From assembly GCA_022827945.1 (NCBI GenBank), contig JAJEIT010000061.1, positions 1 through 37,109 on the forward strand: a stretch of 37,109 nt of DNA, written 5' to 3'. This DNA is from Dehalococcoidia bacterium (GTDB taxonomy: Bacteria; Chloroflexota; Dehalococcoidia; Tepidiformales; Tepidiformaceae). The translations under genes and the position numbers were made by a program. The notes under the pieces were generated by a model. The model was not told the DNA's origin. It saw nothing but the letters and a program-made list of their open reading frames with translations, and ran no database searches. Shown piece after piece: positions 4,001 to 20,424 of the stretch (the stretch's first letter is position 1; every line of letters starts with the position of its first letter).

Positions 4001-4605
4001 CGTTACCTGGCTCGCCGTGGCGCTTTTCCTTGCGGAGGCCTTAGCGGCCGTCTGCGAGGGCTGCGTCCACCTTCTCGGCCACGGCGGTCGCCTATACCGA
4101 GAATTGGCAGAGACAGTTAAGCCCCTATCCACTGACATCGCCACCCACAACAGCCAAGTGCAGACCCAAGGAGGCCGCACCCGGTCTGCCCTGGGCGTTG
4201 GGCGGAACTGCAGCCGATCGTGCGATGAACTCCACTGCCCCAGGAATCCCTACTGCCCCGCCGATGCAGGTTTTTCGGTAGCGCCCCGGGCCCAAGGACA
4301 TGGTTCGCCGTCCGCCGTGGGAATCGCTACCGCTGAGCATCGCGCGCTCGCGCTACAGGAGCCTTACTCGTTGGAGGGTCTTCGTGTGAGCGTTTGGACT
4401 GAGGCCACAATTTCGTCAAACAACGCTCCTACGCACGCGTCTCCAGCGTCGGCCCCGAAACATCTGCTAACGGAAAGTTCACCTTGGAATATAGCAATCC
4501 ACCCCCTTGATGCGAACGCATGCATGAAGCCATGGGTGCCTGCTCATCGCAGCCCCACGGCCAGCTCGAGAGTTCGTAGTACAGTCCCGTCAGGTGTCAC
4601 AGGCC
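4001..4605. other. Gene-poor stretch, nothing recognised
   Basis: An open frame spans most of this stretch on the plus strand (4017-4640) but has no recognisable domain, no convincing ribosome binding site and an unnatural composition. The part around 4380-4560 is visibly less GC-rich than the genes on the right. It may hold the left boundary of the mobile element, but no att-like direct repeat was found by eye. Confidence 0.5.
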
Positions 4606-4701
4606 GGGGTGCATGCGCGCACCCCCCTGCAGGCAGTTAACGGCCGACCCTTTCGCGCTCACACTCGGTTGCCCTCACCACACCGCCTCAGGCCAGGAGG
4701 G
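4606..4701 (+). promoter_or_regulatory. Promoter/leader cassette, copy 1 (T4SS operon)
   Basis: An inverted repeat GGGGTGC (4606-4612) / GCACCCC (4619-4625) is followed by a block at 4619-4681 that aligns without gaps to 15148-15210, with 50 of 63 positions identical by hand count. Inside it are a possible -35 TTAACG (4637-4642), a 17-nt spacer and a possible -10 CACACT (4660-4665). Downstream, AGGAGG sits about eight bases before the GTG start at 4707. The hairpin just upstream of the -35 could be an operator. The promoter hexamers are weak matches and inferred; the repetition is seen directly. Confidence 0.6.
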
Positions 4702-4706
4702 TCATC

Positions 4707-5324
4707 GTGCTATCTCGTATCCCCATCCCGAAATCCAGTAGGAGGAGGCCACCGTTCATCGTCGCTGTGCTGCTGTCCGCGGCGCTGCTGACGGTGGCCG
4801 TCGCCATCCCCACCGCCCTCGTCCTCGCCCAGAACCCGCCCACCGACGAGGTCGTCTTCGTCAACGCCAGCGAGGAACCCGTCGAGCGCAAGGGCGACGG
4901 ACGCTTCATCGCGCGTCCCGTCTTCAGCACGCAGGTCGCGCCCCTCTACTACGGCGTGCGCGACCCCGACACGGGCGAGTTCCTGACGACGATGTTCCGC
5001 GTCCAGGGCGGCGAGAAGAAGCGCAGTGACGGCTGGGAGTACTCCTTCGAGTACCCCTTCGAGGACGACCAGGTGGAACTCGACAAGGAGCGTCCGTACC
5101 TGCTCGTCATCCTCGCTATCAAGAACGGTGAGACGTACCGCTTCTACACCGCCATCCCCGAGCACCGGCCCGGCGGCATCTGGAACAAGATCCTGAACGC
5201 GCTCGACCCCAGGGAATGGGGGCGGGCGATCGCGGGCTGGGTGATCGAGGGGACGCACGGCGTCCTCTGCGGGGTGGTGGAGCAGGCCACCGGCGAAGAC
5301 GCCGACCGCTGCCGGGGCCAGTAG
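4707..5324 (+). CDS. Exported or membrane-anchored protein, first gene of the T4SS-like operon
   Basis: A 205-residue protein starting at GTG 4707, with AGGAGG about eight bases upstream. The N terminus is basic (residues 1-15), followed by one hydrophobic segment at roughly residues 17-40, which fits an uncleaved signal anchor or signal peptide. The rest is soluble and charged, with a possible amphipathic C-terminal part. I recognise no family. It is the first gene after the repeated promoter cassette and lies 3 bp before the VirB6-like gene, so it is very likely a structural or accessory part of the same transfer apparatus on the outer face of the membrane. It does not resemble a VirB1 transglycosylase or VirB8 that I can identify. 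Confidence 0.75.
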   Translation: MLSRIPIPKSSRRRPPFIVAVLLSAALLTVAVAIPTALVLAQNPPTDEVVFVNASEEPVERKGDGRFIARPVFSTQVAPLYYGVRDPDTGEFLTTMFRVQGGEKKRSDGWEYSFEYPFEDDQVELDKERPYLLVILAIKNGETYRFYTAIPEHRPGGIWNKILNALDPREWGRAIAGWVIEGTHGVLCGVVEQATGEDADRCRGQ

Positions 5325-5327
5325 GTC

Positions 5328-6323
5328 ATGCCGGACATCATCAGCGGCACCCCGGCGGAGATGACCTACCTGCACCCCATCGTGCGCGAGGCGTGGATGG
5401 TGGTGTGGGCCATCACCTCGGCCATGCTCGTCGCCATCCTCGGCTGGATGGGGCTGAGCTTCACCATCCAGGAGCACCTCGGCCAGGCGCAGGCGGGCTG
5501 GCGGGAGATGGTCCCCCGTCTCCTCCTCGGACTCGCCGCCGCCGCTACCTCCCTCTGGTGGTGCGGGCTCGTGATCGACGTGGCGCACGCGGTCTCCAGC
5601 TTCGTCGCCGCCTCCCTCGGCCTCAGCGCCGGCGACCTCCTGCGCTCATCGGCGCAGACCCTGCTCACGGCGGTCGAGGTGGGGAGCGTGGGCATGGCCC
5701 TGCTGCTCGCCCTGCTCTACCTCGTCTACGGCTTCTTCGTCCTCTACGTCCTGTTGCAGCTCATCATGCGGCTGGCGCTCATCGACCTCCTGATCGCGCT
5801 CGCACCCGCCGCCCTCGGCCTCTGGATCCTGCCGCACACGGCGGGCTGGGGCCGGCACTGGCTGCGGCTGTTCATGACGACCGTCTCCCAGCAGGCGATC
5901 CAGCTGATCGCCCTGGCGATGGGCTTCGGCATGCTCAACCTGCTGGCAGACATCGCCGCCTTCGAGCCGATCCAGGACCTCGTCTGGAAGCTGCTGCTGT
6001 CGCTCGCCTTCGTCTACCTGGCGACGCGCGTGCCCGCGCTGCTCGGCAACGCCGGCACGTTCGACGCCTGGCTCCACACCCTCCACTTCGGCATGGCCCT
6101 GCCCGGGAGCATGGTCCGCTCCGCGCGCAGCGTGGGGATGCTGGGCCGGGGCGTGATGGGCGCCGGGAGGGGCGCGGGAGCCACCGTCGCTGCCGGAGCG
6201 GCTGGCGCCGCGGCCGGGGCGGGGCTCGCCGTTGGAGCGGGAGCCGTGCGCTCCGCCGCCGAGACGGCCACTCCCGGAGAGGGCGGAGGGGCAGCCGGCA
6301 TGCCCAGGAGCGCGTCCGAGTAG
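5328..6323 (+). CDS. VirB6/TrbL-like polytopic membrane protein of the T4SS
   Basis: This 331-residue protein has about five to six hydrophobic segments: roughly residues 20-45, 62-88, 118-150 (probably two helices), 180-205 and 215-235. They are followed by a cytoplasmic-looking tail rich in Gly and Ala (about residues 270-331). That layout is typical of VirB6/TrbL-type inner-membrane channel proteins of type IV secretion systems, which are poorly conserved in sequence. The context agrees: it sits 3 bp after the exported protein and upstream of VirB2-like, PrgI, VirB4 and VirD4-like genes. The call rests on topology and neighbourhood rather than a diagnostic motif. Confidence 0.7.
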   Translation: MPDIISGTPAEMTYLHPIVREAWMVVWAITSAMLVAILGWMGLSFTIQEHLGQAQAGWREMVPRLLLGLAAAATSLWWCGLVIDVAHAVSSFVAASLGLSAGDLLRSSAQTLLTAVEVGSVGMALLLALLYLVYGFFVLYVLLQLIMRLALIDLLIALAPAALGLWILPHTAGWGRHWLRLFMTTVSQQAIQLIALAMGFGMLNLLADIAAFEPIQDLVWKLLLSLAFVYLATRVPALLGNAGTFDAWLHTLHFGMALPGSMVRSARSVGMLGRGVMGAGRGAGATVAAGAAGAAAGAGLAVGAGAVRSAAETATPGEGGGAAGMPRSASE

Positions 6324-6343
6324 CCCACCACCAACCACAACCC

Positions 6344-6362
6344 GGCGCGGGTTTCCCGCGCC
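6344..6362. repeat. Intra-operon hairpin before the pilin gene
   Basis: A perfect 8-bp inverted repeat GGCGCGGG (6344-6351) / CCCGCGCC (6355-6362) with loop TTT lies in the 139-nt gap between the VirB6-like gene and the first pilin gene. It has no clear T-run after it. It could be a processing or stability element that lets the pilin be made in larger amounts, or a partial terminator. Neither role is shown. Confidence 0.6.
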
Positions 6363-6462
6363 GCCCACCACTCGAGGAGCAGAAAAAGCGATGTGCCGCT
6401 AGCACGACGGAGCAGCCCCACCGGCAACGACCAGCAGACACCGCACAAGGAGTTGCGAAGCA

Positions 6463-6759
6463 ATGGAAGACCTCGTCCAGACCATCTCCAACATCGTCGG
6501 CATCCTCCTCGGCCTCGTGGGGGCCGTGGGCGTCGGCTTCTTCATCTACGGCGCCTATCTCTACCTCACCGCCTCGGGCGCGCCCCACCAGATGGAGCGC
6601 GGCAAGAGCGCGATGATGACGGCCCTCGCCGGCATCGTCCTGGCGATGGTGGCCTTCGGCATCGTCGAGCTCGTCATCGGCGCCGTCGTCGACCCGGCCG
6701 TGGACATCGGCGACATCCCCGACCCGAACGCCGCCCCCACCGCCCAGTCGGGGACGTAG
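6463..6759 (+). CDS. VirB2/TrbC-like pilin subunit
   Basis: A 98-residue protein with two hydrophobic helices, about residues 10-36 (ILLGLVGAVGVGFFIYGAYL) and 48-75, separated by a short polar turn (ASGAPHQMERGKSAM). The turn-and-helix pattern is that of TrbC/VirB2-type pilins, in which a GK-containing loop sits between two membrane helices. The start is ATG 6463 with AAGGAG ten bases upstream. It lies 139 nt after the VirB6-like gene and 2 nt before the PrgI fusion gene. It probably builds the extracellular or membrane conduit. No cleaved signal peptide is obvious. Confidence 0.75.
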   Translation: MEDLVQTISNIVGILLGLVGAVGVGFFIYGAYLYLTASGAPHQMERGKSAMMTALAGIVLAMVAFGIVELVIGAVVDPAVDIGDIPDPNAAPTAQSGT

Positions 6760-6761
6760 CC

Positions 6762-8459
6762 ATGCAAGCGCATGAAGTCCCCACCCACGTGCAGGCCGAG
6801 GACCGCGTCCTGCTCTGGTTCACCTTCCCCCAGATCGTCGCACTGACGGCGGTCGCGGCCCTCGCCTACGGGGTCTACAGCCTCGCCCCCTTCGGTCCCT
6901 CGGGGGTGCGGCTGGCCCTGGCCAGCCTTCTCGGGCTGACGGGCGTGGCCGCGGTCGCCGGCAAGATCGGAGGGCGGCGGCTGCCCCTGGTCGTGGCCGA
7001 CCTCCTCCGCTTCTGGCTGGGGCCGCGGCGCTACGCCGGCTCTCCCGCCGAACTGGTGCGGTGCGAGCCGCCCCCGTCTCCGCCGCCCACCCCCAATCCG
7101 CTCCAGCTGCTGGTAAAGCGCACCCGGCGCGGACTGAGGAAGCTCCGCAAGCGGCGGCGGCGGGGCGAACGCAAGCCCTTCCGCGCGCACTGCCGCCTCG
7201 GCAAGCGCCTCTTCCGCCGCCGCGGGGAGGGCGGCAAGGGCCAGCGCCAGGAGATCCGCCTCCTCGGACGGCGGGCGGGACTCGCCCTGCTGGCCGTCTC
7301 CGTAGCGGCGACGACGGCCGTCGGGGTGATGGCGCTCGCGGCGCAACCCGCCAGCGCCGACGGCCACGACCAGTGGTTCGAGGAGGAGGTGCTCATCCCG
7401 GAGCCCGTCCCCGGGCAGCGCCTCTTCCTCGAGCGCCTCACCGTCTACGGCGACCGCGCCGGCATCGCGCTACGGGCGTCCACCGACCTGCAGGTCCACG
7501 TGCGCGCCTACGGAGGTGACGGCGGGCAGACCCTCGTCTACCAGGCGACGGAGAGCCTCGTGACGGGAGAACGCCGCGGCTGGGACGTGCCCCTGGATGG
7601 GGAGTTCCCGTCGGTGACGGTCTCCTGGCAGGACGGGTTCGGGGAGGCGGGAGCGTTCAGCCTCGAAGGGGCGCAGCTTCCCTATCCGCTGCCATCCATC
7701 GAGGGAGAGCTCTGCTCCGTGGCGGTGACCTCGCTCTCGTGGTCGCCCGGTCGCATCGAGGGGAGCGTCTCCTCCCGTTGCGCGGACACGGTCGAGGAGC
7801 GGGTTGAGCTTCCCGTCGCCGCCGGCCACCACGAGGCGTCGGTGACGGCCCTCATCGAGGCCTCGGTGACGGACCTCTCGGGAACGGTCACCGTCACGTC
7901 CGGAACGTGGACTGCTGCCGCGGACCTCGCGCCGAACGGGAGCACGACCTTCCGCCTTCCGATAGGAGGCGGGGCCGGGGTCCAGGCCGTGGCCGTCGAG
8001 GCCGCCATCGAGGCGACGACGACGGCTCCCCTTCCAGCGCTGGTCGAGCTCACGCACCACCCGGAGCGCACCGATCAGCTCACCGAGACGGCGTCGGTCA
8101 CCATCCCCGCTTTCGGCGACTCCGTCACCGAGACCATCACGGTCACCGGCGAGGACGGGACACCGGTCAGTCACAGCGTCACCGCCAGCTGCTACGTCCC
8201 CGAGTCGGTCGTCCGCCAGGACGTCGTTTTCACCGTCATCCACGAGGAGCACGTGCGCGCCGAGGTCGTGGCGCGGGCTCCCCTCGTCCGCGGCCGGAGC
8301 GAGTCTCTCGCCCTGGCCCTGAGCGTCGCCTCCGATGACCCCTACGAGGCGCTCGCCTCGCAGGAGCCTGAGGACGAGGAGGAGGTCCTCTCCACCCAGA
8401 CCGCCGTCAGTCCCGAGGTCCTGCAATGGCTCCTCGGGGTCGTCAACGAAGGGCAGTAG
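6762..8459 (+). CDS. PrgI/VirB3-like protein fused to a large exported domain
   Basis: A 565-residue protein starting at ATG 6762, two bases after the pilin stop; the frame is open further upstream but only this start follows the pilin. Residues 1-85 look like a PrgI/VirB3 domain: an EVPTHVQAEDRVL start, then FTFPQIVALTAV leading into the first of two membrane helices. Residues about 110-165 form a strongly basic linker of many Arg and Lys. A third membrane helix (about residues 170-195) ends in a signal-like ASA-D sequence. The remaining 370 or so residues are Thr/Val/Glu-rich, look beta-structured and should lie outside the membrane. Ordinary PrgI proteins are about 100-130 residues long, so the fusion is unusual. 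The C-terminal part matches no family I recognise. Confidence 0.75.
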   Translation: MQAHEVPTHVQAEDRVLLWFTFPQIVALTAVAALAYGVYSLAPFGPSGVRLALASLLGLTGVAAVAGKIGGRRLPLVVADLLRFWLGPRRYAGSPAELVRCEPPPSPPPTPNPLQLLVKRTRRGLRKLRKRRRRGERKPFRAHCRLGKRLFRRRGEGGKGQRQEIRLLGRRAGLALLAVSVAATTAVGVMALAAQPASADGHDQWFEEEVLIPEPVPGQRLFLERLTVYGDRAGIALRASTDLQVHVRAYGGDGGQTLVYQATESLVTGERRGWDVPLDGEFPSVTVSWQDGFGEAGAFSLEGAQLPYPLPSIEGELCSVAVTSLSWSPGRIEGSVSSRCADTVEERVELPVAAGHHEASVTALIEASVTDLSGTVTVTSGTWTAAADLAPNGSTTFRLPIGGGAGVQAVAVEAAIEATTTAPLPALVELTHHPERTDQLTETASVTIPAFGDSVTETITVTGEDGTPVSHSVTASCYVPESVVRQDVVFTVIHEEHVRAEVVARAPLVRGRSESLALALSVASDDPYEALASQEPEDEEEVLSTQTAVSPEVLQWLLGVVNEGQ

Positions 8460-8461
8460 CC

Positions 8462-8773
8462 GTGCTGAAGCGCACCGCAACCGCCCTGCTCTTCGCCGGC
8501 GTCGCGCTCCTCTCGACGGGCGCGGCGCCGGAGGAGGAGCAGGCGATGCTCGAAGCCTTCAACGGGGCGCTCACGGGGATGGCCTACGCGGCCGGCGGCC
8601 TGGCCGTCTTCGCCATCGCCTGGGCCGGAGTCGTCCTCATGGCCGACGGAGCGGAGGGGCGCTCCGGGCGGGCGCGCACCGCCGTCGTCATGGCGGTCGT
8701 CGGGCTCGTCCTCGTCCTCTCCGCGAAGGGCATCGCCCTCGCCCTCCTCAACGGCGTCATTCCGACCACCTAG
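8462..8773 (+). CDS. Second pilin-like small membrane protein
   Basis: A 103-residue protein starting at GTG 8462, two bases after the preceding stop. It has an N-terminal signal-like segment (KRTATALLFAGVALLSTGAA), a short acidic stretch (EEEQ), and two further hydrophobic helices (about residues 33-60 and 75-98) separated by a polar loop (ADGAEGRSGRARTA). This resembles the VirB2/TrbC family layout and the first pilin at 6463. It may be a second pilin or a minor subunit. It lies 19 nt before the VirB4 gene. Confidence 0.65.
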   Translation: MLKRTATALLFAGVALLSTGAAPEEEQAMLEAFNGALTGMAYAAGGLAVFAIAWAGVVLMADGAEGRSGRARTAVVMAVVGLVLVLSAKGIALALLNGVIPTT

Positions 8774-8792
8774 CACGAAGGAGACCTCAACC

Positions 8793-11000
8793 ATGAAGAC
8801 ACCCGCATTCATGCGCACCGAGCCACCCGTCATTGGGGGCAGCGCGCCCGCCGCTCCCGAGCCGAAGCCGCCACTCCCCCTGCCCCTCTGCTTCCTCCTC
8901 TCCCACGTGGAGGAGGAGGCGATCGTTCGCCTCGACGGGGAGAAGATCGGTGTCTGCGAGGTGCTCGGCCTGGAGCTGGACGAGCCCAAGCTCGGGGCCT
9001 TCGCGGGCGCCCTCAACGCCCTCGCCTTTCCCGTCCAGCTGCTCGTGCGCCAGCACCCGCCCGACCTCGGCCCGCTGCGGGACGCACTCAGGGAGTCGCA
9101 GCCCGAAGCCCTGCCCCCGCAGACCGAGGCGGCGGCGCAGTCGCTCCAGGGGCTCCTGGGAGAGCTGGAGACCCGGGACGGCGTCCTTGACCGACGCTTC
9201 TACGCGGCCTGTGCGGAGGAGCACGCGGAGGAGCTGCAGGGACTGCTCGTGCGGGCGGGGCTCTCCGTCCACCCCCTGCGGGGCCGCACCCTGCGTCGGC
9301 TGCTCATCGCCTCCGCGCTCGGTGGCACGCCCTCCGACCGCGACGAGGTGCGTCCCGCCCGCATCGAGATCAACCGCACCGACATCCGCCTGGGGGAAGG
9401 GCTGGCGCGGTCGCTGCACCTCGGCCGCTGGCCGCGCTCGCTCGCCCCCGGCTTCCTCCAGGGGCTGATGACGGCGGGAGTCCCCATGGACCTCGCCCTC
9501 CACCTCGGCCCCATCCCCGCCGAGCAGGCGGCGCGCACCCTGGAGTGGCAGAAGGTCCGCTTCGAGTCCGCCCAGAGCCTCTCCCTCAATAAGGGCAAGA
9601 CCCTCTCCTCCGAGGCCGAGATCGCCCTCGAGGACGTGACCCGCCTGCGGGACGAGGTCCAGCGCGGGCGGGAGCGCCTCTTCCACGCCTCGCTCTCCCT
9701 CACCCTCCACGCGCAGGACGACCACGTCCTCACGGAGATGACGCAGCGGGCGAAGGGGCACTTCGGGGCGACGCTGGGGAAGCTCGACACGCTCGCCTTC
9801 CGCCAGCGCGAGGGCCTCCTCTCGACCCTTCCCCTCGCCCTCAACGCCGTCGCCGCGTGGCGCACCCTCGACACGTCCTCGCTGGCGCGGCTCTTCCCCT
9901 TCTCGCCGCCCGACCTCGACACCCGCAGCGGCACGCTTGCCGGCATCGACCTCAGGGCGTGCGCCCCCGTCGTCTACGACGCCTTCGACGGCACTCACCT
10001 CAACGCCAACACCGCCGTTCTCGCGCGGTCGGGAAGCGGGAAGTCGTTCGCGACGAAGCTGGGGGTGCTGCGCGGACTGATGCGAGGCGTCGTCGCCTAC
10101 GTCATCGACCCCGAGGGCGAGTACGCCTCGATGGCCCGCGCCGCGGGCGGCCGCGTGCTCTCCCCGGGCGTCTCCGGCCAGGGCCTCAACCCCTTCATCA
10201 TCGAGCGCCGCGACGGCGAGGAGTTGCTGCAGCGCATCGGCAGCCTGCGCCGGCTCATCGAGGTGATGGTGGGCGAACCGCTCGGGGCGGAGCGCCGCGC
10301 CGCCCTCGACCACGTCCTCGCCGCCTACTACGCCGAGCCCCGCGCGGGCGCCGGCTTCGGGGACTTCTACCGCTTCCTCCAGGAGAGCGATGCAGACCTG
10401 GCCAAGCTGCTGCGGCCCTTCGCCACGGGCAGCCTTCGCCACCTCCTCTCCGACGAGAGCGACGACCTCCTCGCCAAGGAGGCGCTCGTCACCGTCTTCG
10501 ACCTGCGCCTGCTGGAGCCGGAGCTGCGGCCCGCCGCGGCGATGGTCTGCACGGAGACGGTCTGGGCGGCCGCCGCGCGCGACCCCCGCCCCCGCCTGCT
10601 GGTCGTGGACGAGGTCTGGTCGATCATGCAGCACCCCCAGGGCGCCGCCTTCATGGTGTCGATGGCGAAGCGGGCGCGAAAACACCGGCTGGGGCTGCAG
10701 TTCATCACGCAGGACGTGCAGGACCTCCTCAGCGAGGATTCCTCACGCACGATCACCGGCCATTCCGGCAGAGCCCTCCTCCAGAACGCCGCCTTCAAGC
10801 TGCTCCTCCAGCAGGACGCGGCCGCCATCTCCACCGTGGGCGACGCCTTCGATCTGCCCCAGGACCTGCAGCGCTGGCTGCTTTCCTGCCAGCGAGGCGA
10901 CGGCCTCCTGCTCGCGAGGGGCAACCGCTTTCCCGTCCGCATCGAGGCCACCCCCGAGGAGCACGCCCTCATCGAGTGGAAGCCCGGCAGCGGGCACTGA
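8793..11000 (+). CDS. VirB4-family T4SS ATPase
   Basis: A 735-residue protein with the architecture of VirB4/TraC/TraE conjugation ATPases. The N-terminal half is divergent. The C-terminal ATPase domain has Walker A ARSGSGKSFATK (about residues 411-422), then VIDPEGEY after the first strand, Walker B RLLVVDEVW (about residues 600-608), and the QFITQDVQDLL motif of the same family. The start is ATG 8793 with AAGGAG about eight bases upstream. It should power assembly and transport from the cytoplasmic face, together with the VirB6-like and PrgI proteins. The length is normal for Gram-positive-type VirB4. Confidence 0.92.
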   Translation: MKTPAFMRTEPPVIGGSAPAAPEPKPPLPLPLCFLLSHVEEEAIVRLDGEKIGVCEVLGLELDEPKLGAFAGALNALAFPVQLLVRQHPPDLGPLRDALRESQPEALPPQTEAAAQSLQGLLGELETRDGVLDRRFYAACAEEHAEELQGLLVRAGLSVHPLRGRTLRRLLIASALGGTPSDRDEVRPARIEINRTDIRLGEGLARSLHLGRWPRSLAPGFLQGLMTAGVPMDLALHLGPIPAEQAARTLEWQKVRFESAQSLSLNKGKTLSSEAEIALEDVTRLRDEVQRGRERLFHASLSLTLHAQDDHVLTEMTQRAKGHFGATLGKLDTLAFRQREGLLSTLPLALNAVAAWRTLDTSSLARLFPFSPPDLDTRSGTLAGIDLRACAPVVYDAFDGTHLNANTAVLARSGSGKSFATKLGVLRGLMRGVVAYVIDPEGEYASMARAAGGRVLSPGVSGQGLNPFIIERRDGEELLQRIGSLRRLIEVMVGEPLGAERRAALDHVLAAYYAEPRAGAGFGDFYRFLQESDADLAKLLRPFATGSLRHLLSDESDDLLAKEALVTVFDLRLLEPELRPAAAMVCTETVWAAAARDPRPRLLVVDEVWSIMQHPQGAAFMVSMAKRARKHRLGLQFITQDVQDLLSEDSSRTITGHSGRALLQNAAFKLLLQQDAAAISTVGDAFDLPQDLQRWLLSCQRGDGLLLARGNRFPVRIEATPEEHALIEWKPGSGH

Positions 11001-11219
11001 TCCGAACACACAGGAACGAGAGGAACAGAAAGATGGGGTCCCTCCGCTAGCTGCCTGCCCGGAGCCTGGAACGCCTTCGTCCCGCGGCCGCCGTGAGCGG
11101 CCAGGGGTTGGCCGTCGCCTCCGCGGCGAACGCGGCATCCCGACCACGCGAAGAAGGGGAGGCCCTCACGGCCGCCCCTGCCATGACGCCTCCAACACCC
11201 AGAACCAGAAGGAGTACCC

Positions 11220-13790
11220 ATGAATCCCATCCACCGGCTCTTCCCCCGCTCCGTCCCGAAGGACCCCGTCCTGCTGACGGTGACGCCGCCGCGCACGGGC
11301 GAGCGCACCCTGCTCGGCGTCGAGAACCTCCTCGCCTCCATCGCCGTCCCCGAGCCGTTCTCGCTTGAGCTGGCCGGTGACGCCGGGGGCGTCACCCTCA
11401 TGGCCCGCTGCCGCGACGACGAGGTCGTGCGCCGCCAGATCGCCGCCCACTACCCCCAGGCCCGCATCGAGGAAGTGTCCAAGGCGAAGGATCCCCTGCG
11501 CCTCGGCGAGGGGGAGGAGGCCTGGGGCCTGACCCTCACCTCCACGGGCCCCGACTACGTGCCCTTGCGCACCTTCCGCGACGACGACCTGCTCGATCCC
11601 GGCTCCGACCCCCTCCTCGCCCTGCTGGGGGCGCTCGCCGCCGCGGAGGAGGGGGAGCGGGTCGTGGCCCGGCTCCTCCTCCGCTCCCTCGACCCGGACT
11701 GGTCGCAGCCCCACCAGGAGCTCGCCTTCGGGCCGCCGCCCGCTCAGCGCCCTGCTCCGGCGCCCTCGTCCTCCCCGCAGGGCGCTTCCGGCGGCCCGGA
11801 GCCCCTCGCCCTCGCCGTCCTCGCCGTGGTCGGTCTCGTCGCCTTCACGGGCTGGGACTGGGTGCAGAACGGCGAGCCCCTCAAGGCCGCCCTCCTCGGC
11901 CTGGGGGCGCTGGGAGCGAGCATCGCCGGACTCTGGGTCTGGCAGCGCTGGAAGGGCGGCCGCGACCGCGTGTACGACCCCGCCCTGATCAAGGAGAAGG
12001 TGTCGCGCGGGGCCTTCGAGGCGCAGGTCGAGGTGACCGCCATCCTGCCCCCGGGCGGGAAGGCGGATCGCGCGCGGGAGCTGCTGGAGGCGGTGGCGTC
12101 CGCCTACCGCCACTACGACCATCCCGCCGGAGCGCGCTTCAAGATTGGCAAGGCGCGGCCCGTGGAGGCCGCCCCCTCCCTCGAACCCACCCCGCCCGGC
12201 TTCTTCGGCAGGCGTAGCGTCCTCGGGGTGCGCGAGGTCGCCTCCCTCTGGCATCCGCCGGGGGCCGGCGACGAGGCGCCCTTCGTCGAGCGGGCGGGGG
12301 CGAAGGCCCTGCTGCCCGCGGCCAGGAGCGTCCGCGGAGGCGCGCTCGTGGGGGAGACCACGGCGGGCGCCCCCCGGGAGATCCGCTTCCCCGACGACCT
12401 CCTGCGCCGGCACCACCTCTACGTGGCGAGGACGCGCATGGGCAAGTCCACGCTCATGCGCCATGGGGTCGCCCACAAGCTGCGGGAGAAGGCGGCGGGC
12501 CGCGACGGGGACGCCATCGTCGTCGTCGACCCCCACGCCGACCTCGTGGCCGGCATCCTCGAGGACGTTCCCGAGTCGCTCGTGGACCGCGTGCGGCTCA
12601 TCGATCTCGCCGACGAGACCGCCTTCCCCGGCATCAACCTCCTCGACACGCGCATCTTCGCGGACCGCGACCGCACGGCCGACTCGGTCGTCAGGGTGGC
12701 GCGGGGACTGTGGGAGCAGTGGGGACCGAGGATGCAGTCCATCCTCGAGCAGACCGTGAAGACGCTGCACGAGGCCAACACCCACCGCGAACCGGACGAC
12801 CAGTTCACCATCCTGGACGGCCTGCGTCTGCTCTCCGACGAGCGTTTTCGCAAGGACGTGCTCGGCCTGGTGAGCGATCCCTACCTGCTGGAGTGGTGGG
12901 CGCGGGACTTCGGGGGCTGGCGTCGCGAGTACCGGGCGGAAGCGCTCGCTCCTGTGCAGACGCGCCTCTCCTACTACGCCTCCTCGAAGCGGGCGCGGGC
13001 CATCCTGGGCCAGCCCCGCTCCACCATCGACCTGCGTCGCACCATCCTCGACGGGGACGTGCTCCTCGTCTCTACCGCCCAGGGCGCCGCCGGGCGCGAC
13101 GTGGCCGCCCTCGTGGGCGCCTCGCTGCTGAACCTCGTCGACGCCGTCATCCGCGAGCAGGAGAGCCTGCCTCTGGACCAGCGCCGGGGCGCGCTCGTGG
13201 TCGTGGACGAGATGCAGTCGATGCCGGGCGTCGACTACGAGTCGATGCTCTCGGAACTGGGCAAGTACGGGGCGAGCTTCGTGCTCGCCACGCAGAGCCT
13301 GGCCAAGCTCGGGGACCTCTCCCCCACCATGAAGGACACCGTCCTCGCCAACGTGGGCTGCCTGGCGGTCTTCCAGGTGGCCGGCTCGGACGCCCGCCAG
13401 CTGGTCTGGGAGCTGGACCGGGAGCGCGTCTCCGAGGACGACATCGTCTCCCTGCCCGTGCACCACTGCTACGTACGCGCCACCGTGGGCCGCGAGCGCC
13501 TGCCCGCCTACTCCATGCAGGTGAGGAAGCCGGATGGGGGCGACGCCGGCGTCGCCGCCCGCATCCGCGAGGCGGCCCGCGCCTACAGCGCCTCCGCCTC
13601 GGACGTGGCGGCGAGGGAGGCCCATCACGCCGGGGGGCGCGTGGAGGAGTACCGCGCGGGACTGGGGACGCTCAGGGGCGGTGAGCCGTCGCCGCCATCA
13701 CCGGACAAGGGGCGCAGGCGGCGGAGCAGACGGCCCCGGGGCGATGGCGCCTCCCCGGAGGGCGTCGTCGGAGAGGAGGGTGAGACGTGA
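11220..13790 (+). CDS. VirD4/TraG-like coupling ATPase
   Basis: An 856-residue protein with AGAAGGAG just upstream of ATG 11220. Residues 1-190 are a soluble N-terminal domain. Two membrane helices follow (about residues 197-215 and 225-245). The ATPase domain has Walker A VARTRMGKST (about residues 402-411), a VVVDPHADL strand, and Walker B GALVVVDEMQSM (about residues 657-668) followed by VLATQSLAKL. The tail is basic (GRRRRSRRPRG). This matches the type IV coupling protein / TraG-type DNA transport ATPases, although the N-terminal domain is larger than in classical VirD4, where the helices come first. It lies 219 nt after virB4. It presumably recruits DNA or protein substrate to the channel. 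No relaxase partner is visible. Confidence 0.85.
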   Translation: MNPIHRLFPRSVPKDPVLLTVTPPRTGERTLLGVENLLASIAVPEPFSLELAGDAGGVTLMARCRDDEVVRRQIAAHYPQARIEEVSKAKDPLRLGEGEEAWGLTLTSTGPDYVPLRTFRDDDLLDPGSDPLLALLGALAAAEEGERVVARLLLRSLDPDWSQPHQELAFGPPPAQRPAPAPSSSPQGASGGPEPLALAVLAVVGLVAFTGWDWVQNGEPLKAALLGLGALGASIAGLWVWQRWKGGRDRVYDPALIKEKVSRGAFEAQVEVTAILPPGGKADRARELLEAVASAYRHYDHPAGARFKIGKARPVEAAPSLEPTPPGFFGRRSVLGVREVASLWHPPGAGDEAPFVERAGAKALLPAARSVRGGALVGETTAGAPREIRFPDDLLRRHHLYVARTRMGKSTLMRHGVAHKLREKAAGRDGDAIVVVDPHADLVAGILEDVPESLVDRVRLIDLADETAFPGINLLDTRIFADRDRTADSVVRVARGLWEQWGPRMQSILEQTVKTLHEANTHREPDDQFTILDGLRLLSDERFRKDVLGLVSDPYLLEWWARDFGGWRREYRAEALAPVQTRLSYYASSKRARAILGQPRSTIDLRRTILDGDVLLVSTAQGAAGRDVAALVGASLLNLVDAVIREQESLPLDQRRGALVVVDEMQSMPGVDYESMLSELGKYGASFVLATQSLAKLGDLSPTMKDTVLANVGCLAVFQVAGSDARQLVWELDRERVSEDDIVSLPVHHCYVRATVGRERLPAYSMQVRKPDGGDAGVAARIREAARAYSASASDVAAREAHHAGGRVEEYRAGLGTLRGGEPSPPSPDKGRRRRSRRPRGDGASPEGVVGEEGET

Positions 13791-14005
13791 GGGCGGCGAC
13801 CTGCGAGGGAGCGCTCCCGAGCCGGGCGGCGGGCATGCCCCTCGCCGCCCGCCCGGGGCTCGCCGCCCTCACGGGTTGGTCGCCGGGCGCCGCCCTGGAA
13901 GAGCGGGGGCCGCCGGGGCGCGCCTGGCGAACGACCTGCGAGGGGGAGTCACGGCAAAGGCTGCCGGGGGCGCCGGCCCCGGCGCGCGACGGAGAACGGC
14001 CATGA
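13787..14005 (+). CDS. Small ORF coupled to both neighbours, unknown
   Basis: A 72-residue frame starting at GTG 13787, whose last bases overlap the TGA of the VirD4-like gene (GTGA). Its own stop overlaps the ATG of the DUF3800 gene (ATGA at 14002). Such 4-nt overlaps at both ends suggest translational coupling. The protein is Ala/Pro/Arg-rich with no domain I recognise, and in DNA this GC-rich a chance frame is possible. It is plausible but unproven. Confidence 0.35.
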   Translation: MRAATCEGALPSRAAGMPLAARPGLAALTGWSPGAALEERGPPGRAWRTTCEGESRQRLPGAPAPARDGERP

Positions 14006-14754
14006 GGCTCTACTACCTCGACGAGCGCGAGAGCGCCCGCCACCACGTCCGCTCCGCCCTGGGGGTCGACGGCGAGCGCTGGAACGACCTCTTCAGGGAT
14101 GTCCGCGCCTGGCGGCAGGAGCTGCGGAAGCGCTACGACATCAGCCCGGCGGCGGAACTGCTGCCCCTCGACCTGCTGGGCCCGCGGGAGGAGCCGGGCG
14201 GGGGGCGCGACGGCTGGGTCTCCCCCGAAGAGGGTGCGGACATCTTCCGTGGCGGTCTGCGCCTCCTCGAGGAGGCTGCTTGTCGGGCTGGCGGGATCGA
14301 GCTGATCAACGTCTGCCTGGAGAAGGGGGCGCGCGGGCGCACGGACGAGGTCAGCCTCGGCCGTCTCCTGACGCGCATCAACACCTCCGCCGCCGGCGCG
14401 AGCCGCCACGCCTTCCTCATCTTCGACCAGGTCCGCGAGGAGCCGATCACGCGGCTCTACCGGCGCCTGCGCGTCCACAATCCCATCCCCAGCCGCCACG
14501 AGGTCTGGGGGGACGGCTCGCCAGTCCGCAACATCCCCCTTGCGCGCATCATCGGCGGACCCGCCTTCCGCAGCGCCGGGGACGATCACCTGCTGCAACT
14601 GGCGGGCTTCGTCGCCTGCGCCCTCCTGCTCCAGGAGCAGGGCGTTGGGGCAGGCGGGGCGGACCTCGATCTCGAACACGCCTTCTCCACCCTCAACCGC
14701 GTCCTCAACCGGGAGGCGTCGCGGCGAGACCGGCAGGGGGTGGTGAGGCGGTGA
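14002..14754 (+). CDS. DUF3800-domain protein, possible RNase H-fold nuclease
   Basis: A 250-residue protein. It starts MRLYYLDERES, the position where DUF3800 proteins carry an acidic YxDES-like motif (here D7, E8), has a second acidic strand HAFLIFDQ (D142), and ends with DDHLLQLAGFVA (D194, D195, Q199). That last segment corresponds to the conserved S/D-x-x-LQ-x-AD-x-x-A segment, with AD replaced by AG. DUF3800 has a predicted RNase H-like fold and is often found on mobile elements; its activity is not established. The start is ATG 14002, overlapping the stop of the small ORF. As the last gene of the T4SS operon it could process the DNA that is transported, but that is conjecture. Confidence 0.65.
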   Translation: MRLYYLDERESARHHVRSALGVDGERWNDLFRDVRAWRQELRKRYDISPAAELLPLDLLGPREEPGGGRDGWVSPEEGADIFRGGLRLLEEAACRAGGIELINVCLEKGARGRTDEVSLGRLLTRINTSAAGASRHAFLIFDQVREEPITRLYRRLRVHNPIPSRHEVWGDGSPVRNIPLARIIGGPAFRSAGDDHLLQLAGFVACALLLQEQGVGAGGADLDLEHAFSTLNRVLNREASRRDRQGVVRR

Positions 14755-14801: not shown

Positions 14802-15134
14802 TCAGGCTGATCTTCGGCTTGCAGCCATAGGCGGTGCGGAGTTCGGTGGCGAGTCCCCAGGCGCGGACGCGCGGGGAACAACACCGACTCCAACCGGCCC
14901 CTCAACAACGGTCCGCGAGACACTCACTCACGCGCCCGGCGATTCCAGGCGTCCATCGACGTGCTGCCCGAAGGTGGGAGCCCGGCACCCGGTTCGTGGC
15001 CAAGGTGCAGTTCACTCGACCTGTCAGATGAGCGCCCAAATATCATCGTGACGTTAGGAAATTAACCGTTAGCATCGCACTTATGTCCGAGAATTCCACT
15101 ACCGGCAGGCCGGATCGACCGGGACCACCCCGCA
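14802..15134. other. Gap between the T4SS operon and regulator genes, no gene recognised
   Basis: No convincing coding frame was found. The last part (around 15040-15080) is locally AT-richer, which would suit a promoter or boundary region. The stretch at 14853-14878 loosely resembles the CRISPR stem, probably by chance. Confidence 0.5.
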
Positions 15135-15220
15135 GGGGTTCGTTCACGCACCCCCTTGCAGGCAGTTACCGCAGACGCGTTTCGCGCTCACACTTGCTCG
15201 CCCTTACCACATGAGCGGAG
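15135..15220 (+). promoter_or_regulatory. Promoter/leader cassette, copy 2
   Basis: Positions 15148-15210 align without gaps to 4619-4681 (50 of 63 identical). The block again carries a GC-rich imperfect inverted repeat just upstream (GCAGGGGT near 15132 against ACCCCCTTGC), GGCAGTTA, a possible -35 TTACCG (15166-15171), a 17-nt spacer and a possible -10 CACACT (15189-15194). As in copy 1, a GGAGGG site and a GTG follow (GTG at 15228). Conservation of this geometry argues for a shared regulator. Its identity cannot be read from the sequence. Confidence 0.6.
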
Positions 15221-15380: not shown

Positions 15381-15620
15381 ATGCCACGACGGCCTCTGGT
15401 CCGGCTCAAGCAGCGGGCGCTCTGGGATCGGTTGGAGTTGATGAACCGCTCCCAGCGCTGGCTCGCGCGCGAGGCGGGCATCAGTCCCGGCTACCTCTCC
15501 GAACTCGTGAACGAGGGCCGTGCTCCCTCGGGGGCACTCCGCCGGCGCCTGCAGGCGGCCCTCGCCATTGACGACTTCGATGAACTCTTCGCGCTGGAGT
15601 ACGAGGATGACGCCTCGTAG
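15381..15620 (+). CDS. Small Xre-type helix-turn-helix regulator
   Basis: A 79-residue protein that is almost entirely one helix-turn-helix domain. The helix pair is around residues 20-50, with SQRWLAREAGISPGYLSELV as the recognition region, as in lambda Cro/Xre proteins. The start is ATG 15381 with GGAGG about eleven bases upstream; ATG 15438 is possible but would remove helix one. It is the first complete gene after promoter copy 2 and probably regulates the element, perhaps through the hairpins of the promoter cassettes. Confidence 0.75.
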   Translation: MPRRPLVRLKQRALWDRLELMNRSQRWLAREAGISPGYLSELVNEGRAPSGALRRRLQAALAIDDFDELFALEYEDDAS

Positions 15621-15930
15621 TCGCTCCTCCGCCTCCTCAGCGAGCGGGCGAATGCTCTCCATCAACGGCCGCCACGCGCCCTATGAGAATGGTGTGCTTC
15701 CCGCCGACTTTCCCAGGCGCATCAACCTCGTCAGAGAGCGCAGCGGCCTCAGCTGGAGCGTCTTTGCCGAAGCGGTGGGGGCGGACCCCAAACAGGTGCT
15801 GCGCTGGCGGCATGGGGCAGAACCCTGCGGCGGCGCCCTGTACTCGCTCCTGCGCTTTGCGAGCCATGTCCCCGGTGGCGTTGAACTGATCATGGGCGAG
15901 GACTTCGAGGCTAAGGGACAGGAGGGATGA
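15607..15930 (+). CDS. Small helix-turn-helix protein of the DFP/GLSW type
   Basis: A protein of about 107 residues if started at ATG 15607, which overlaps the end of the previous gene; ATG 15652 is an alternative that keeps the whole domain. The core ADFPRRINLVRERSGLSWSV with RWRHGAEP is a helix-turn-helix of the same type as the next gene (DFPLRLEQLKEASGLTW and RWRKGARP), so the two are paralogues. It is probably a DNA-binding regulator. No toxin lies next to it. Confidence 0.65.
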   Translation: MTPRSRSSASSASGRMLSINGRHAPYENGVLPADFPRRINLVRERSGLSWSVFAEAVGADPKQVLRWRHGAEPCGGALYSLLRFASHVPGGVELIMGEDFEAKGQEG

Positions 15931-15933
15931 GCC

Positions 15934-16197
15934 ATGCCCCGGCAGCCCAAGCTTCCGCGTGAGCACCACGAATTTCCCAGGGACTTTCCCCTGCGTCTGG
16001 AACAGCTGAAGGAGGCCTCGGGCCTCACCTGGAGCGAACTGGCCCGGCGGCTTGGGACCAATGCCCTCACCCTCAGGCGCTGGCGCAAGGGCGCCCGCCC
16101 CAACGGGCTGCATCTCCTCGCACTTCAAGGCCTGGCGGAGTCACTGGATCTCACCCATCTGCTGCCCGTCGTGAGGCAACGCCATGCCGGGTCGTGA
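15934..16197 (+). CDS. Small helix-turn-helix protein, paralogue of the preceding gene
   Basis: An 87-residue protein with GGAGGG seven bases upstream of ATG 15934, 3 nt after the previous stop. It carries RLEQLKEASGLTWSELARRL as the first half of the HTH and TLRRWRKGARPNG as the recognition helix and turn, then an LLALQGLAESL helix. I recall similar small proteins from Chloroflexota and Actinobacteria. Three HTH genes in one run (15381-16197) suggest layered control or a maintenance module for the element. Confidence 0.7.
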   Translation: MPRQPKLPREHHEFPRDFPLRLEQLKEASGLTWSELARRLGTNALTLRRWRKGARPNGLHLLALQGLAESLDLTHLLPVVRQRHAGS

Positions 16198-16289: not shown

Positions 16290-17018
16290 GTGATGGTAAG
16301 CCGGTCCGAACTCGACGAGCGACTCCGTGACCTGGAGCGAGAAGCCGGCCATGAAGAGTTCGTGCGCGCCCTGGCGACGGTTCTGTCGCGCCGGGTCCAC
16401 GTCGAAGACTCCTGGCGGAAGCTCGTCGAACACATTGCCGCCGCCTTGCCGGAGGAGTCCGATCTGCTGGATGCCGCCGCCTCACTTGCCGCACGGCATC
16501 ACGCCCTCGAGGACGACGAGTCCCGGCTGCGGAGCTGGCTGGCGCTGTTCGCACTGCGCGGTGACCTCGCCCGGCAGCTGGGCGGAGAGCCTCGCCAGGT
16601 ACTGGACGAAGCCGACGAGGCACTCATGACTCGGGCTCGGCTCCAGGGGGAAGCGATCTGGACGATCTGGCGTGAACCCATGCTTGCACCGAAGGACGCC
16701 GCGGTCGCTCTTGGGGCAAGGGCGACGAACCGCGAGAAGGTGCGGCAGTATCGCGAGCGTTCCTGGCTCGTGGGGGTGGCCTCCGGCCGGGGCTACCTCT
16801 ACCCGGCGTTCCAGTTCGATCAGGAACGGCGCGATGTCTTTGCCGAGGTACGGGCTGTGAACGAGCGCCTCGATGCCGCGAGCGACCCCTGGGGGGTAGC
16901 GTCCTGGTGGACCTCCCCGCACGCACGCCTCGGCGCCCGGCCGGCTGACCTCGTGGGAACCCACCGGGGCGACGACCTCGTGGCGGTGGCCACCTCAGTT
17001 GCCGGGCTGGTCGGGTAG
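16290..17018 (+). CDS. Antitoxin of a RES toxin pair (ParS/MbcA-type C-terminal domain)
   Basis: The frame begins at adjacent GTG 16290 and ATG 16293, giving 242 or 241 residues; no strong ribosome site decides between them. The last 60 residues or so, with AVNERLD, SDPWGVASWW, ARLGARPADLVGT and DDLVAVAT, match the toxin-binding domain of Xre/MbcA/ParS antitoxins. Residues about 125-180 (APKDAAVALGA...REKVRQYRERSWLVGV...YLYPAFQFD) look like the usual DNA-binding part. The first 120 residues are mostly helical and extra compared with typical antitoxins of about 120-150 residues. The RES-domain toxin follows 6 nt downstream, supporting a toxin-antitoxin function. Confidence 0.8.
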   Translation: MMVSRSELDERLRDLEREAGHEEFVRALATVLSRRVHVEDSWRKLVEHIAAALPEESDLLDAAASLAARHHALEDDESRLRSWLALFALRGDLARQLGGEPRQVLDEADEALMTRARLQGEAIWTIWREPMLAPKDAAVALGARATNREKVRQYRERSWLVGVASGRGYLYPAFQFDQERRDVFAEVRAVNERLDAASDPWGVASWWTSPHARLGARPADLVGTHRGDDLVAVATSVAGLVG

Positions 17019-17024
17019 GGAAGC

Positions 17025-18285: not shown

Positions 18286-18327
18286 TTTGATTTGGGGTCG
18301 GCACTCGTCCCCGACCAGGAGGCACGT

Positions 18328-18665: not shown

Positions 18666-20345
18666 ATGAAGCAGCCACCAGCCCCCAAGCCCGCCGCCCT
18701 CTACGCCCGCGTGTCCAGCGACCGCCAGGACGTCGACCTCTCCGTCGCCGCTCAGCTGCGGGCGCTCCGCGACTACGCCGGGAAGAACGGCTACCTCGTC
18801 GCCCGGGAGTACGTCGACGAGGCGGAGAGCGGCCGGGTCGCGGACCGGCCCCAGTTCCGCACGATGCTGGACGCGGCCAGCGGGCCGAACCCTCCCTTCG
18901 AAGAGATTCTCGTCTGGAAGTTCTCCCGCTTCACGCGCAAGCGCGAGCACGCGGTCGCCTTCAAGTCGATGCTTCGCCGGCGCGGCGTCCGGGTCGTCTC
19001 CATCACCGAGCACGCCGATGACTCGCCCACGGGCAAGCTCATGGAGGCGATCATCGAGAGCGTCGACGAGTTCTACTCGGAGAATCTTGCCCAGGAAGTC
19101 GTGCGGGGGATGCGCGAGGCCGCCTCCCGCGGCTTCTTCCTCAGCCCCAAGGCCCCGTTTGGCTACAAGCGGGTGAAGGTACAAGACGGAATGCGGGAGC
19201 GCCCGACCCTGGAGGTCGACCCTGCGGCCTCCCCCCTCGTGCGGGAGATCTTCGAGAGTTCGCTGCGAGGAAACGGCCTGAAGGAGATATGCCGCGACCT
19301 CAACGAGCGGGGCATCACGAAGAACGGCAAGCGCTGGCAGAAGAACGGCCTCTACTACCTGCTCACCAACGAGGCCTATACGGGAACCGCGGTCTGGGGC
19401 CGCAGGGTGAAGGGCCCGAAGGCTCCCGACCCCGTGCGGGTGGAGGGGGCCTGGGAGGCGCTCATCTCGAAGGAGCTGTTCGACAAGGTGCAGCAGGTTC
19501 TGCGGGATCGGGCCCCGGCGAAGCAGCGGCCGGCGCGGGCTGGGAGCAAGTTCCTGCTCAGCGGCCTGCTGCGCTGCGGCCTCTGCGGCAAGCCCTATAC
19601 CGGACAGGGAGCGAAAAGCGGGCGCTTCGGTTACTACGTCTGCGGGACGCTGCTGCGTGAGGGCGCGGGGACCTGCGAGGCTCGGTACCTGAATGCGGGC
19701 AGGGTGGAGGAGTTCATCGTGGGGAAGATCAGGGAGCGCATCCTCACGGACGAGACCATCACGGAGCTGGTGACGCGGGTGGCCGAGGAAGTGGACGCGA
19801 TGGCGGGAGAGCTCGGTGACAGGCTCAAGGCCATCGAGGCGGAGCTTGCCGATGTAGATGGCAGGCTGCAGCGGCTCTACGAGGCCCTCGAGAAGAGCGA
19901 TCTCACGCTGGAGGCGCTGTCGCCGCGGATACTCGAACTGCGGCACCGCGAGGACCAACTTGCGGCAGCGCGGGAGGAGGCTGCTGCCCATCTCGCGCAG
20001 CGGCGGGTGGAGTTGCCCACCACCGAGGAGATTAAGGGGTACGTCGCTGACTTCCGCAGCTTCCTGTGCGAGGGCACGATCCCCGAGCGGAAAGCGCTCA
20101 TCCGCAACTTCGTGAAGGGTATCGAGGTGACCGGCGACGAGGCCAGGCTGACGTACACGGTCCCGATGCCCTCGGATGGCGTGACCAGCGAGGAAACCCC
20201 GGTTCTCGATTTCGTCCAGTCCGGCCTACCACCCCCCGGACCACAACGTGCGGTGCTGCGAACTCCGGCGGAGCTGGGCTTGGCCTGGCGTGCCCGCGGG
20301 CGGCCCCGCCCCCGCCAGACGGTTTCAGTCCCCGTCCCCCGTTGA
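18666..20345 (+). CDS. Large serine recombinase (probable integrase)
   Basis: A 559-residue protein with GGAAAGGAAG upstream of ATG 18666. The resolvase domain starts ALYARVSSDRQ (catalytic Ser in RVS, about residue 17) and includes VWKFSRFTRKREHA and the GKLMEAIIESVDEFYSE segment. A recombinase domain follows (KAPFGYKRV...LEVDP...RGITKNGKRWQKNGLYYLLTN). Next come a zinc ribbon with two CxxC-type clusters (CGLCGKPY about residues 304-311, then YYVCG and GTCEARY) and a coiled-coil stretch of about residues 370-450. This is the standard large serine integrase order. The tail of about 45 residues after VTSEETPVLDFV is Pro/Arg-rich and may reflect an att junction at the gene's 3' end. It probably integrates and excises the element to its left. 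Confidence 0.92.
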   Translation: MKQPPAPKPAALYARVSSDRQDVDLSVAAQLRALRDYAGKNGYLVAREYVDEAESGRVADRPQFRTMLDAASGPNPPFEEILVWKFSRFTRKREHAVAFKSMLRRRGVRVVSITEHADDSPTGKLMEAIIESVDEFYSENLAQEVVRGMREAASRGFFLSPKAPFGYKRVKVQDGMRERPTLEVDPAASPLVREIFESSLRGNGLKEICRDLNERGITKNGKRWQKNGLYYLLTNEAYTGTAVWGRRVKGPKAPDPVRVEGAWEALISKELFDKVQQVLRDRAPAKQRPARAGSKFLLSGLLRCGLCGKPYTGQGAKSGRFGYYVCGTLLREGAGTCEARYLNAGRVEEFIVGKIRERILTDETITELVTRVAEEVDAMAGELGDRLKAIEAELADVDGRLQRLYEALEKSDLTLEALSPRILELRHREDQLAAAREEAAAHLAQRRVELPTTEEIKGYVADFRSFLCEGTIPERKALIRNFVKGIEVTGDEARLTYTVPMPSDGVTSEETPVLDFVQSGLPPPGPQRAVLRTPAELGLAWRARGRPRPRQTVSVPVPR

Positions 20346-20424
20346 GGGTTGGCGCGAGGGTTTCAACTGTGCCCGGGAGCTGTCGCGGGCTGGGTGGCCG
20401 CGCACTCAGCGTCGCATGGCTCCT

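What the first reader, a model, noticed from the sequence alone, without database searches (positions are those of the whole stretch)
4707..14754. Compact relaxase-less type IV secretion-like module ending in a DUF3800 gene
Seven genes in tight order (exported protein, VirB6-like, pilin, PrgI fusion, pilin-like, VirB4, VirD4-like) plus a small ORF and DUF3800 form a minimal transfer machine suited to a cell with one membrane. No relaxase, VirB1, VirB8 or VirB11 is visible. Either DNA processing is done by something unrecognised (the DUF3800 RNase H-like protein is the obvious candidate), or the system moves protein, or it depends on a relaxase elsewhere. The family calls rest on motifs read here; the function is inferred.
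Basis: partly seen in the sequence, partly recalled or inferred. Interest (0 to 1): 0.75.

Follow-up and report, generated by a model that had tools for sequence, protein, structure and literature searches.

The report
Conjugative element with deleted relaxase gene
This is a DNA-transfer element of a kind widespread in marine and sponge-associated Chloroflexota bacteria; it looks relaxase-less only because the relaxase gene in this copy has lost its middle 485 codons, so it is not a new kind of transfer machine.

Summary
The seven-gene type IV secretion module is real and in the reported order, and no relaxase profile hits the window. But the "small ORF" at 13787-14005 is the relic of a relaxase gene. 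In 62 of 66 related loci with enough flanking DNA, a ~550-residue PF13814 protein is present, in 54 directly behind the VirD4-like gene. PF13814 is the MOBC relaxase family (restriction-endonuclease type). A profile of these proteins hits the window's 72-residue ORF as model positions 1-36 joined, in frame, to 522-544, so about 485 codons, including the catalytic PD...ExE region, are gone. With the large serine recombinase at 18666-20345 and three small HTH genes, this is a damaged integrative conjugative element (MOBC relaxase + VirD4 + serine integrase), a combination already described in streptococcal mobilizable elements. Intact MOBC-VirD4 units exist elsewhere in the same genome, so transfer in trans is possible but untested. 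Not a new type; what is new to me is the abundance of this family in SAR202/sponge Dehalococcoidia.

The parts
4603..4682 (+). 80-nt element upstream of the transfer operon; second copy at 15132-15211 (78% identical); candidate shared promoter/operator
   Evidence: the repeat finder; also upstream of the same operon in L051 and L046 and aligned
4707..5324 (+). gene A, exported/membrane-anchored protein (start may be 4767)
   Evidence: ORF; orthologues first in the operon, 46-91% identical; no Pfam hit
5328..6323 (+). gene B, VirB6/TrbL-like polytopic protein
   Evidence: PF04610 weak, E 0.021; conserved order and identity
6463..6759 (+). gene C, VirB2-like pilin
   Evidence: PF18895 T4SS_pilin 5.5e-12; NCBIfam Mbov_0395-type pilin-like 3e-10
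6762..8459 (+). gene D, PrgI/VirB3-like N-terminus fused to a TM segment and an extracellular part
   Evidence: PF12666 weak, E 0.21; the N-terminal part matches short PrgI-size proteins in L048-L050
8426..8773 (+). gene E, second pilin-like protein (start may be 8462)
   Evidence: PF18895 1.4e-6, TrbC 8e-6
8793..11000 (+). gene F, VirB4 ATPase
   Evidence: PF19044, PF12846; CD1110-type VirB4 1e-65; solved VirB4 4ag5, 3e-28
11220..13790 (+). gene G, VirD4-like coupling protein
   Evidence: PF10412, PF12696 just under cut-off; conserved Walker A/B in family alignment
13787..14005 (+). relic of the MOBC relaxase gene: residues 1-36 fused in frame to the C-terminal end; junction at about 13886-13895
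   Evidence: BLASTP to intact 554-aa protein; HMM positions 1-36 and 522-544 in one ORF, E 5.5e-5; DNA junction
14002..14754 (+). gene I, DUF3800-related RNase H-fold protein
   Evidence: 3 of 9 orthologues hit PF12686, best 6e-9; collinear profile alignment; AF2 model with RNase HII as best PDB match, E 1.2e-3
15132..15211 (+). second copy of the 80-nt upstream element, before the HTH genes
15381..15620 (+). small HTH_3 regulator, gene J
   Evidence: PF01381 2.6e-5; recurs with the element in relatives
15652..15930 (+). small conserved HTH-like protein, gene K
   Evidence: recurs beside J and L in relatives
15934..16197 (+). small HTH protein, gene L
   Evidence: HTH_Tnp_1 1.6e-5, HTH_3 1.6e-4; recurs in relatives
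18666..20345 (+). large serine recombinase (integrase), gene P
   Evidence: PF00239 6e-32, PF07508 2e-23, PF13408 2e-14; homologues beside the same T4SS in L053/L163, L140, L179 and others

Best explanation
The region is an integrative and conjugative element (or what is left of one) of a family common in Dehalococcoidia/SAR202 Chloroflexota. Genes A-F build a single-membrane mating pore powered by VirB4. Gene G (VirD4-like) is the coupling protein. A MOBC-type relaxase, encoded between G and I, would nick oriT and deliver the strand to VirD4. The serine recombinase integrates and excises the element, and small HTH proteins with a duplicated 80-nt upstream element probably control it. In this copy the relaxase gene has lost about 485 internal codons, including its catalytic region, in frame, so the element cannot process its own DNA. 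It is either stranded or depends on a MOBC relaxase supplied by another element in the same cell. Gene I is an accessory passenger, not the relaxase. Shown: gene content, deletion, relatives with intact relaxase. Inferred: pore function, nicking, regulation, loss of self-transfer.
For: Intact relatives: 54 of 66 usable loci have the PF13814 protein directly behind VirD4 and 8 more have it elsewhere in the locus; PF13814 E-values down to 6e-26, most tested members above cut-off. PF13814 is treated as the MOBC relaxase family and occurs with a VirD4 coupling protein and serine integrase (PMC5357655; PMC12479173); MOBC relaxases are PD-(D/E)xK nucleases, shown for pAD1 TraX (PMC12857230). The 51-member alignment has invariant P426-D427 and E444 plus nearly invariant E446, and the AF2 model (pLDDT 93.8) places D427 just before strand 428-434 and E444 at the end of strand 437-445, as in PD-(D/E)xK enzymes. 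Relic. Serine recombinase. Own genome: six other PF13814 matches, one intact next to VirD4 in L047. Other genes read intact with pN/pS well below 1.
Against: The genome is a fragmented draft, so a misassembled junction cannot be excluded without reads; against that, the relic has also lost two nearly invariant residues (L14, D21), though relic pN/pS is not clearly higher than between intact N-termini. Whole-model fold searches matched only the winged-helix parts of the MOBC protein, so the nuclease domain rests on motif, PF13814 and secondary-structure order. No oriT or left att site was found. No relative was shown to transfer.
Confidence: 0.9

Rival explanations
1. Relaxase in trans: the deletion is tolerated because MOBC relaxases from other elements in the same cell act on this element's oriT, so the copy is a relaxase-minus but still mobile element or a pore donor for mobilizable elements.
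For: Six other PF13814 matches in the genome; intact VirD4-MOBC units without a VirB4 pore exist in the same genome (L047) and in 11 of 14 pore-less loci; the other transfer genes of the window are unbroken and low in pN/pS.
Against: Related relaxases are mostly 47-63% identical across copies and oriT recognition is usually element-specific; no shared oriT was found; intact genes may only mean that the deletion is recent.
Confidence: 0.2
2. Protein secretion or another co-opted role: the relaxase was discarded because the machine now moves something other than DNA, as proposed for most Patescibacteria systems.
For: Relaxase-less monoderm T4SS clusters are common in Patescibacteria and were read as co-opted (PMC12102498). 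A second complete A-G cluster without MOBC within 10 kb exists (L149).
Against: 44 of 46 pore loci with enough downstream DNA carry the relaxase; the window copy keeps a relaxase relic, a coupling protein and a serine integrase; no effector-like gene is evident.
Confidence: 0.05
3. One reading: DUF3800 gene I is a new DNA-processing enzyme that replaces the relaxase.
For: Gene I is RNase H-like and sits in the relaxase position in the window.
Against: In ten related loci gene I follows an intact MOBC gene; only 7 of 46 pore loci have it at all; the N-terminal Asp of 'YLDE' is replaced by H, V or M in L127, L135 and L138.
Confidence: 0.02
4. Assembly artefact: the deletion is a false junction in a draft assembly.
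For: Fragmented draft (99 contigs) with several related copies; junction lies in a short GCCGCC-type microhomology.
Against: Single continuous in-frame ORF, both coupled overlaps (VirD4 stop, gene I start) kept; relic carries its own substitutions at nearly invariant positions.
Confidence: 0.08

Closest known systems
MOBC-VirD4-serine integrase elements of streptococci (Rel_PF13814 IMEs, class 8; PMC5357655)
   Same: PF13814/MOBC relaxase, VirD4 coupling protein and serine integrase in one compact element
   Different: those IMEs have no mating pore of their own; the family here usually carries a full A-F pore, and the window copy has lost the relaxase
Tn1549/CD1110-type and mycoplasma ICE transfer systems (monoderm T4SS)
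   Same: VirB4 matches the CD1110 family (1e-65) and the pilin matches the Mbov_0395 ICE pilin; PrgI-like and VirB6-like partners
   Different: VirB4 only 24-35% identical to plasmid copies; Tn1549 uses a MOBP relaxase, and the tested MOBP family PF03432 was not found in this genus
pAD1 TraX / CloDF13 MobC (MOBC relaxases)
   Same: PF13814/MOBC membership of the intact relatives; restriction-endonuclease-like active-site motif
   Different: no direct sequence or structure comparison with TraX or MobC was made; the window copy lacks the catalytic region
Patescibacteria relaxase-less T4SS (PMC12102498)
   Same: monoderm-type T4SS, T4SS pilins, no relaxase next to VirB4
   Different: there relaxases are absent from most copies; here they are present in nearly all, and the window keeps the relic

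Membership tests
Integrative and conjugative element (ICE), MOBC type | VirB4 and pore genes | tested here: met
Integrative and conjugative element (ICE), MOBC type | coupling protein of the VirD4 superfamily | tested here: met
   PF10412/PF12696 hits just under cut-off in the window copy, two other VirD4-like proteins of the same genome above cut-off; conserved Walker motifs
Integrative and conjugative element (ICE), MOBC type | intact MOBC (PF13814) relaxase in this copy | tested here: not met
   only model positions 1-36 and 522-544 remain; so this copy is a defective relative, not a self-transmissible member
Integrative and conjugative element (ICE), MOBC type | MOBC relaxase in homologous loci | tested here: met
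   62 of 66 loci; PF13814
Integrative and conjugative element (ICE), MOBC type | integrase | tested here: met
   large serine recombinase 18666-20345
Integrative and conjugative element (ICE), MOBC type | att sites / empty site | tested here: inconclusive
   right edge between about 20231 and 20418; left edge not found; flanking contig C41 ends in a short tandem repeat
Integrative and conjugative element (ICE), MOBC type | oriT nicked by the relaxase | not testable with these tools
   needs a nicking assay; no oriT candidate singled out
MOBC relaxase (for the intact relatives) | PF13814 match | tested here: met
   (up to 6e-26)
MOBC relaxase (for the intact relatives) | PD-(D/E)xK nuclease fold and residues | tested here: inconclusive
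   motif and strand order fit, but fold searches only returned the winged-helix domains
MPF_FA/FATA class of T4SS | VirB4 phylogenetic position | not tested
   nearest profiles are Gram-positive/mycoplasma ones; no tree built
DUF3800 (PF12686), gene I | profile match of the window protein itself | tested here: not met
   no hit at E<=1
DUF3800 (PF12686), gene I | profile match of orthologues and RNase H fold | tested here: met
   3 of 9 orthologues, best 6e-9; RNase HII as best fold match, borderline E 1.2e-3

The most novel reading that the evidence does not exclude
Relaxase-minus copies (window, L149) are maintained as shared mating pores, and separate VirD4-MOBC mobilizable units in the same cell supply the relaxase in trans: a division of labour between pore-donor elements and relaxase-donor elements within one genome.
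Probability: 0.12. Interest if true: 0.5.

Novelty: new member of a known kind. Interest (0 to 1): 0.22.

Why it matters
It removes a candidate 'relaxase-free transfer system' and shows why one can appear: small ORFs beside a coupling protein should be tested as relaxase relics before a new mechanism is proposed. Positively, it reveals a multi-copy family of MOBC-type conjugative and mobilizable elements in uncultured Dehalococcoidia/SAR202 from sea water and sponges, a plausible main route of gene exchange there; my paper searches found no description of it.

Tried and rejected
DUF3800 as nickase: rejected (accessory, follows an intact relaxase, Asp not conserved). MOBP relaxase elsewhere in the genus: PF03432 found nothing; other MOB families (MOBF, MOBQ, MOBV, MOBT) were not searched genome-wide. 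CRISPR spacers against the fetched element loci: no match. Defining both ends of the element by an empty site: HAD-side homology starts at 20417, but the other side lies on contig C41, which breaks in a short tandem repeat. Tandem repeats as oriT candidate: nothing convincing. Fold search of the MOBC model for a nuclease match: only winged-helix hits. Single-sequence tblastn of MOBC proteins against plasmids and phages: no match. MOBC remains in L149 and L121: none. PADLOC scan of gene I and neighbours: nothing informative.

Full report
What is there. The window is contig C13 of a 2.85 Mb, 99-contig genome. Relatives with names are mostly uncultured Dehalococcoidia, 'Chloroflexi' and SAR202 MAGs. 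From 4707 to 13790 seven genes run in one direction: exported protein, VirB6-like, pilin, PrgI-like fusion, second pilin, VirB4 and VirD4-like. VirB4 and the pilins are clear profile matches. VirB6, PrgI and VirD4 fall below Pfam cut-offs in this copy, but their order and sequence recur in dozens of loci.

The 'small ORF' is a deleted relaxase gene. In same-genus loci the VirD4 gene is followed, with an overlapping stop/start, by a gene of about 550 codons whose product matches PF13814 Replic_Relax. BLASTP of the window's 72-residue ORF against the 554-residue protein of L052 aligns residues 1-41 to its N-terminus and residues 32-72 to its C-terminus, positions 514-554. A profile built from 12 intact family members hits only this ORF convincingly in the window, as model positions 1-36 (residues 2-37) directly joined to 522-544 (residues 37-59), E 5.5e-5. 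The DNA break lies at about 13886-13895 in a GCCGCC-type stretch present at both ends of the lost segment in the relative. The deletion keeps the frame, the overlap with the VirD4 stop and the start of gene I.

How general the relaxase is. Of 80 named loci found with a VirD4 alignment, 66 have at least 2.3 kb after VirD4; 54 carry the MOBC gene directly behind it, 8 carry it elsewhere in the locus, 4 lack it. Among loci with the VirB4 pore and enough downstream DNA, 44 of 46 have it. The two without it are L121, whose VirB4 and VirD4 hits are also broken, and L149, which looks complete but has a methyltransferase-like gene and other unrelated genes in that place. Fourteen loci have VirD4 without a pore despite more than 3 kb upstream; 11 of these carry MOBC. 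VirD4 and MOBC thus travel as a mobilization unit, with or without the pore. Mosaic identity agrees: L120 is 91-97% identical to the window over pore genes A-F but 77% over VirD4. Some loci are copies from one genome, so these counts are not independent events.

Why PF13814 counts as a relaxase. Coluzzi et al. 2017 (PMC5357655) found PF13814 proteins recognised by CONJscan as MobC, with a VirD4 coupling protein and a serine integrase. A 2025 S. suis survey (PMC12479173) uses the same assignment. The FEMS review (PMC12857230) describes MOBC as related to PD-(D/E)xK restriction endonucleases, with site-directed evidence for pAD1 TraX. In the 51-sequence alignment here the invariant residues include H380, P426-D427 and E444, with E446 nearly invariant. 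The predicted structure (pLDDT 93.8) puts D427 just before one central strand and E444 at the end of the next, as that motif requires. Structure searches returned only winged-helix proteins for other parts of the molecule, so the nuclease fold is not independently confirmed.

Gene I. The window protein does not hit DUF3800, but 3 of 9 orthologues do, best 6e-9; profile comparison is collinear over most of the length, and the AF2 model is most like RNase HII, at borderline significance. Its role as DNA-processing enzyme is not supported: gene I follows an intact MOBC gene in ten loci, most pore loci lack it, and the Asp of 'YLDE' is H, V or M in L127, L135 and L138, with only the following Glu invariant. 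It is best seen as an accessory gene.

The element. A large serine recombinase (18666-20345) closes the right side; homologues stand beside the same transfer genes in other genomes. Three close homologues lose similarity to it at the same point, window about 20231, inside the 3' end of the gene, and chromosomal homology (HAD gene) begins at about 20417, so the right border lies between. The left border was not found; the relatives' neighbour gene (P450) is on contig C41, which ends in a short tandem repeat. An 80-nt element upstream of the transfer operon is repeated before the HTH genes and conserved upstream of the operon in two other species, which suggests shared control (inference).

Function and rivals. 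Most likely the copy is a conjugative element that lost self-transfer through deletion of its relaxase. Transfer in trans is possible, since the genome holds six other PF13814 matches and at least one intact MOBC-VirD4 unit, L047. A co-opted role, as proposed for Patescibacteria, is unlikely given the relic and the near-universal relaxase in relatives. Assembly error is possible; two lost near-invariant residues in the relic (L14, D21) argue mildly against it, but its pN/pS does not stand out from that of intact N-termini.

Novelty. The parts and their combination are known. A MOBC-based conjugative element family with full pores, in several copies per genome in Dehalococcoidia/SAR202, is not described in the papers I could search, but that library is incomplete. 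I score it as a new, damaged member of a known kind.

Noticed in passing
window 8-1133: CRISPR array at the contig edge: 19 repeats of 28 nt (GGTTCCCCCGCACGCGCGGGGATAGACC), 33-nt spacers, type I-E-like. None of the 18 spacers matches the fetched transfer-element loci.
   Followed up: partly
window 4603-4682 and 15132-15211: An 80-nt sequence, 78% identical, upstream of both the transfer operon and the HTH genes; also upstream of the operon in L051 and L046. Candidate shared promoter/operator.
   Followed up: partly
window 16290-17690: RES-domain toxin-like gene (17025-17690, PF08808 3e-16) directly behind a gene with a weak effector-associated-domain (EAD1) match (16290-17018); possible toxin-antitoxin or defence pair carried by the element.
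   Followed up: no
window 18292-18606: HI1420-type antidote protein (PF21716 7e-21) just upstream of the serine recombinase, with homologues beside the recombinase in L129, L184 and L196: possibly a regulator tied to the integrase.
   Followed up: partly
L129, L158, L187, L196; G224:C11, G224:C14; G000:C64: Pairs of convergent large serine recombinases meeting tail to tail; similarity to the window's recombinase ends at the same point in its 3' end (three loci compared), so the att core may lie inside the gene end.
   Followed up: partly
L047 (G000:C20), L036, L044, L160, L167, L176, L188: VirD4-MOBC pairs without a VirB4 pore: mobilizable counterparts of the conjugative elements, one of them in the same genome as the window.
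   Followed up: partly
L149 12550-16750: A complete transfer cluster without any MOBC gene within 10 kb; a DNA-methyltransferase-like gene and other unrelated genes stand in its place.
   Followed up: partly
L120 versus window: Pore genes A-F 91-97% identical but VirD4 77% identical: recombination between pore and mobilization modules.
   Followed up: partly
window 30085-30650 and 31466-31822: Long tandem repeats (105-nt unit, about 5 copies; 189-nt unit, 2 copies) inside a large gene next to an alpha-2-macroglobulin-like gene (31967-37109).
   Followed up: no
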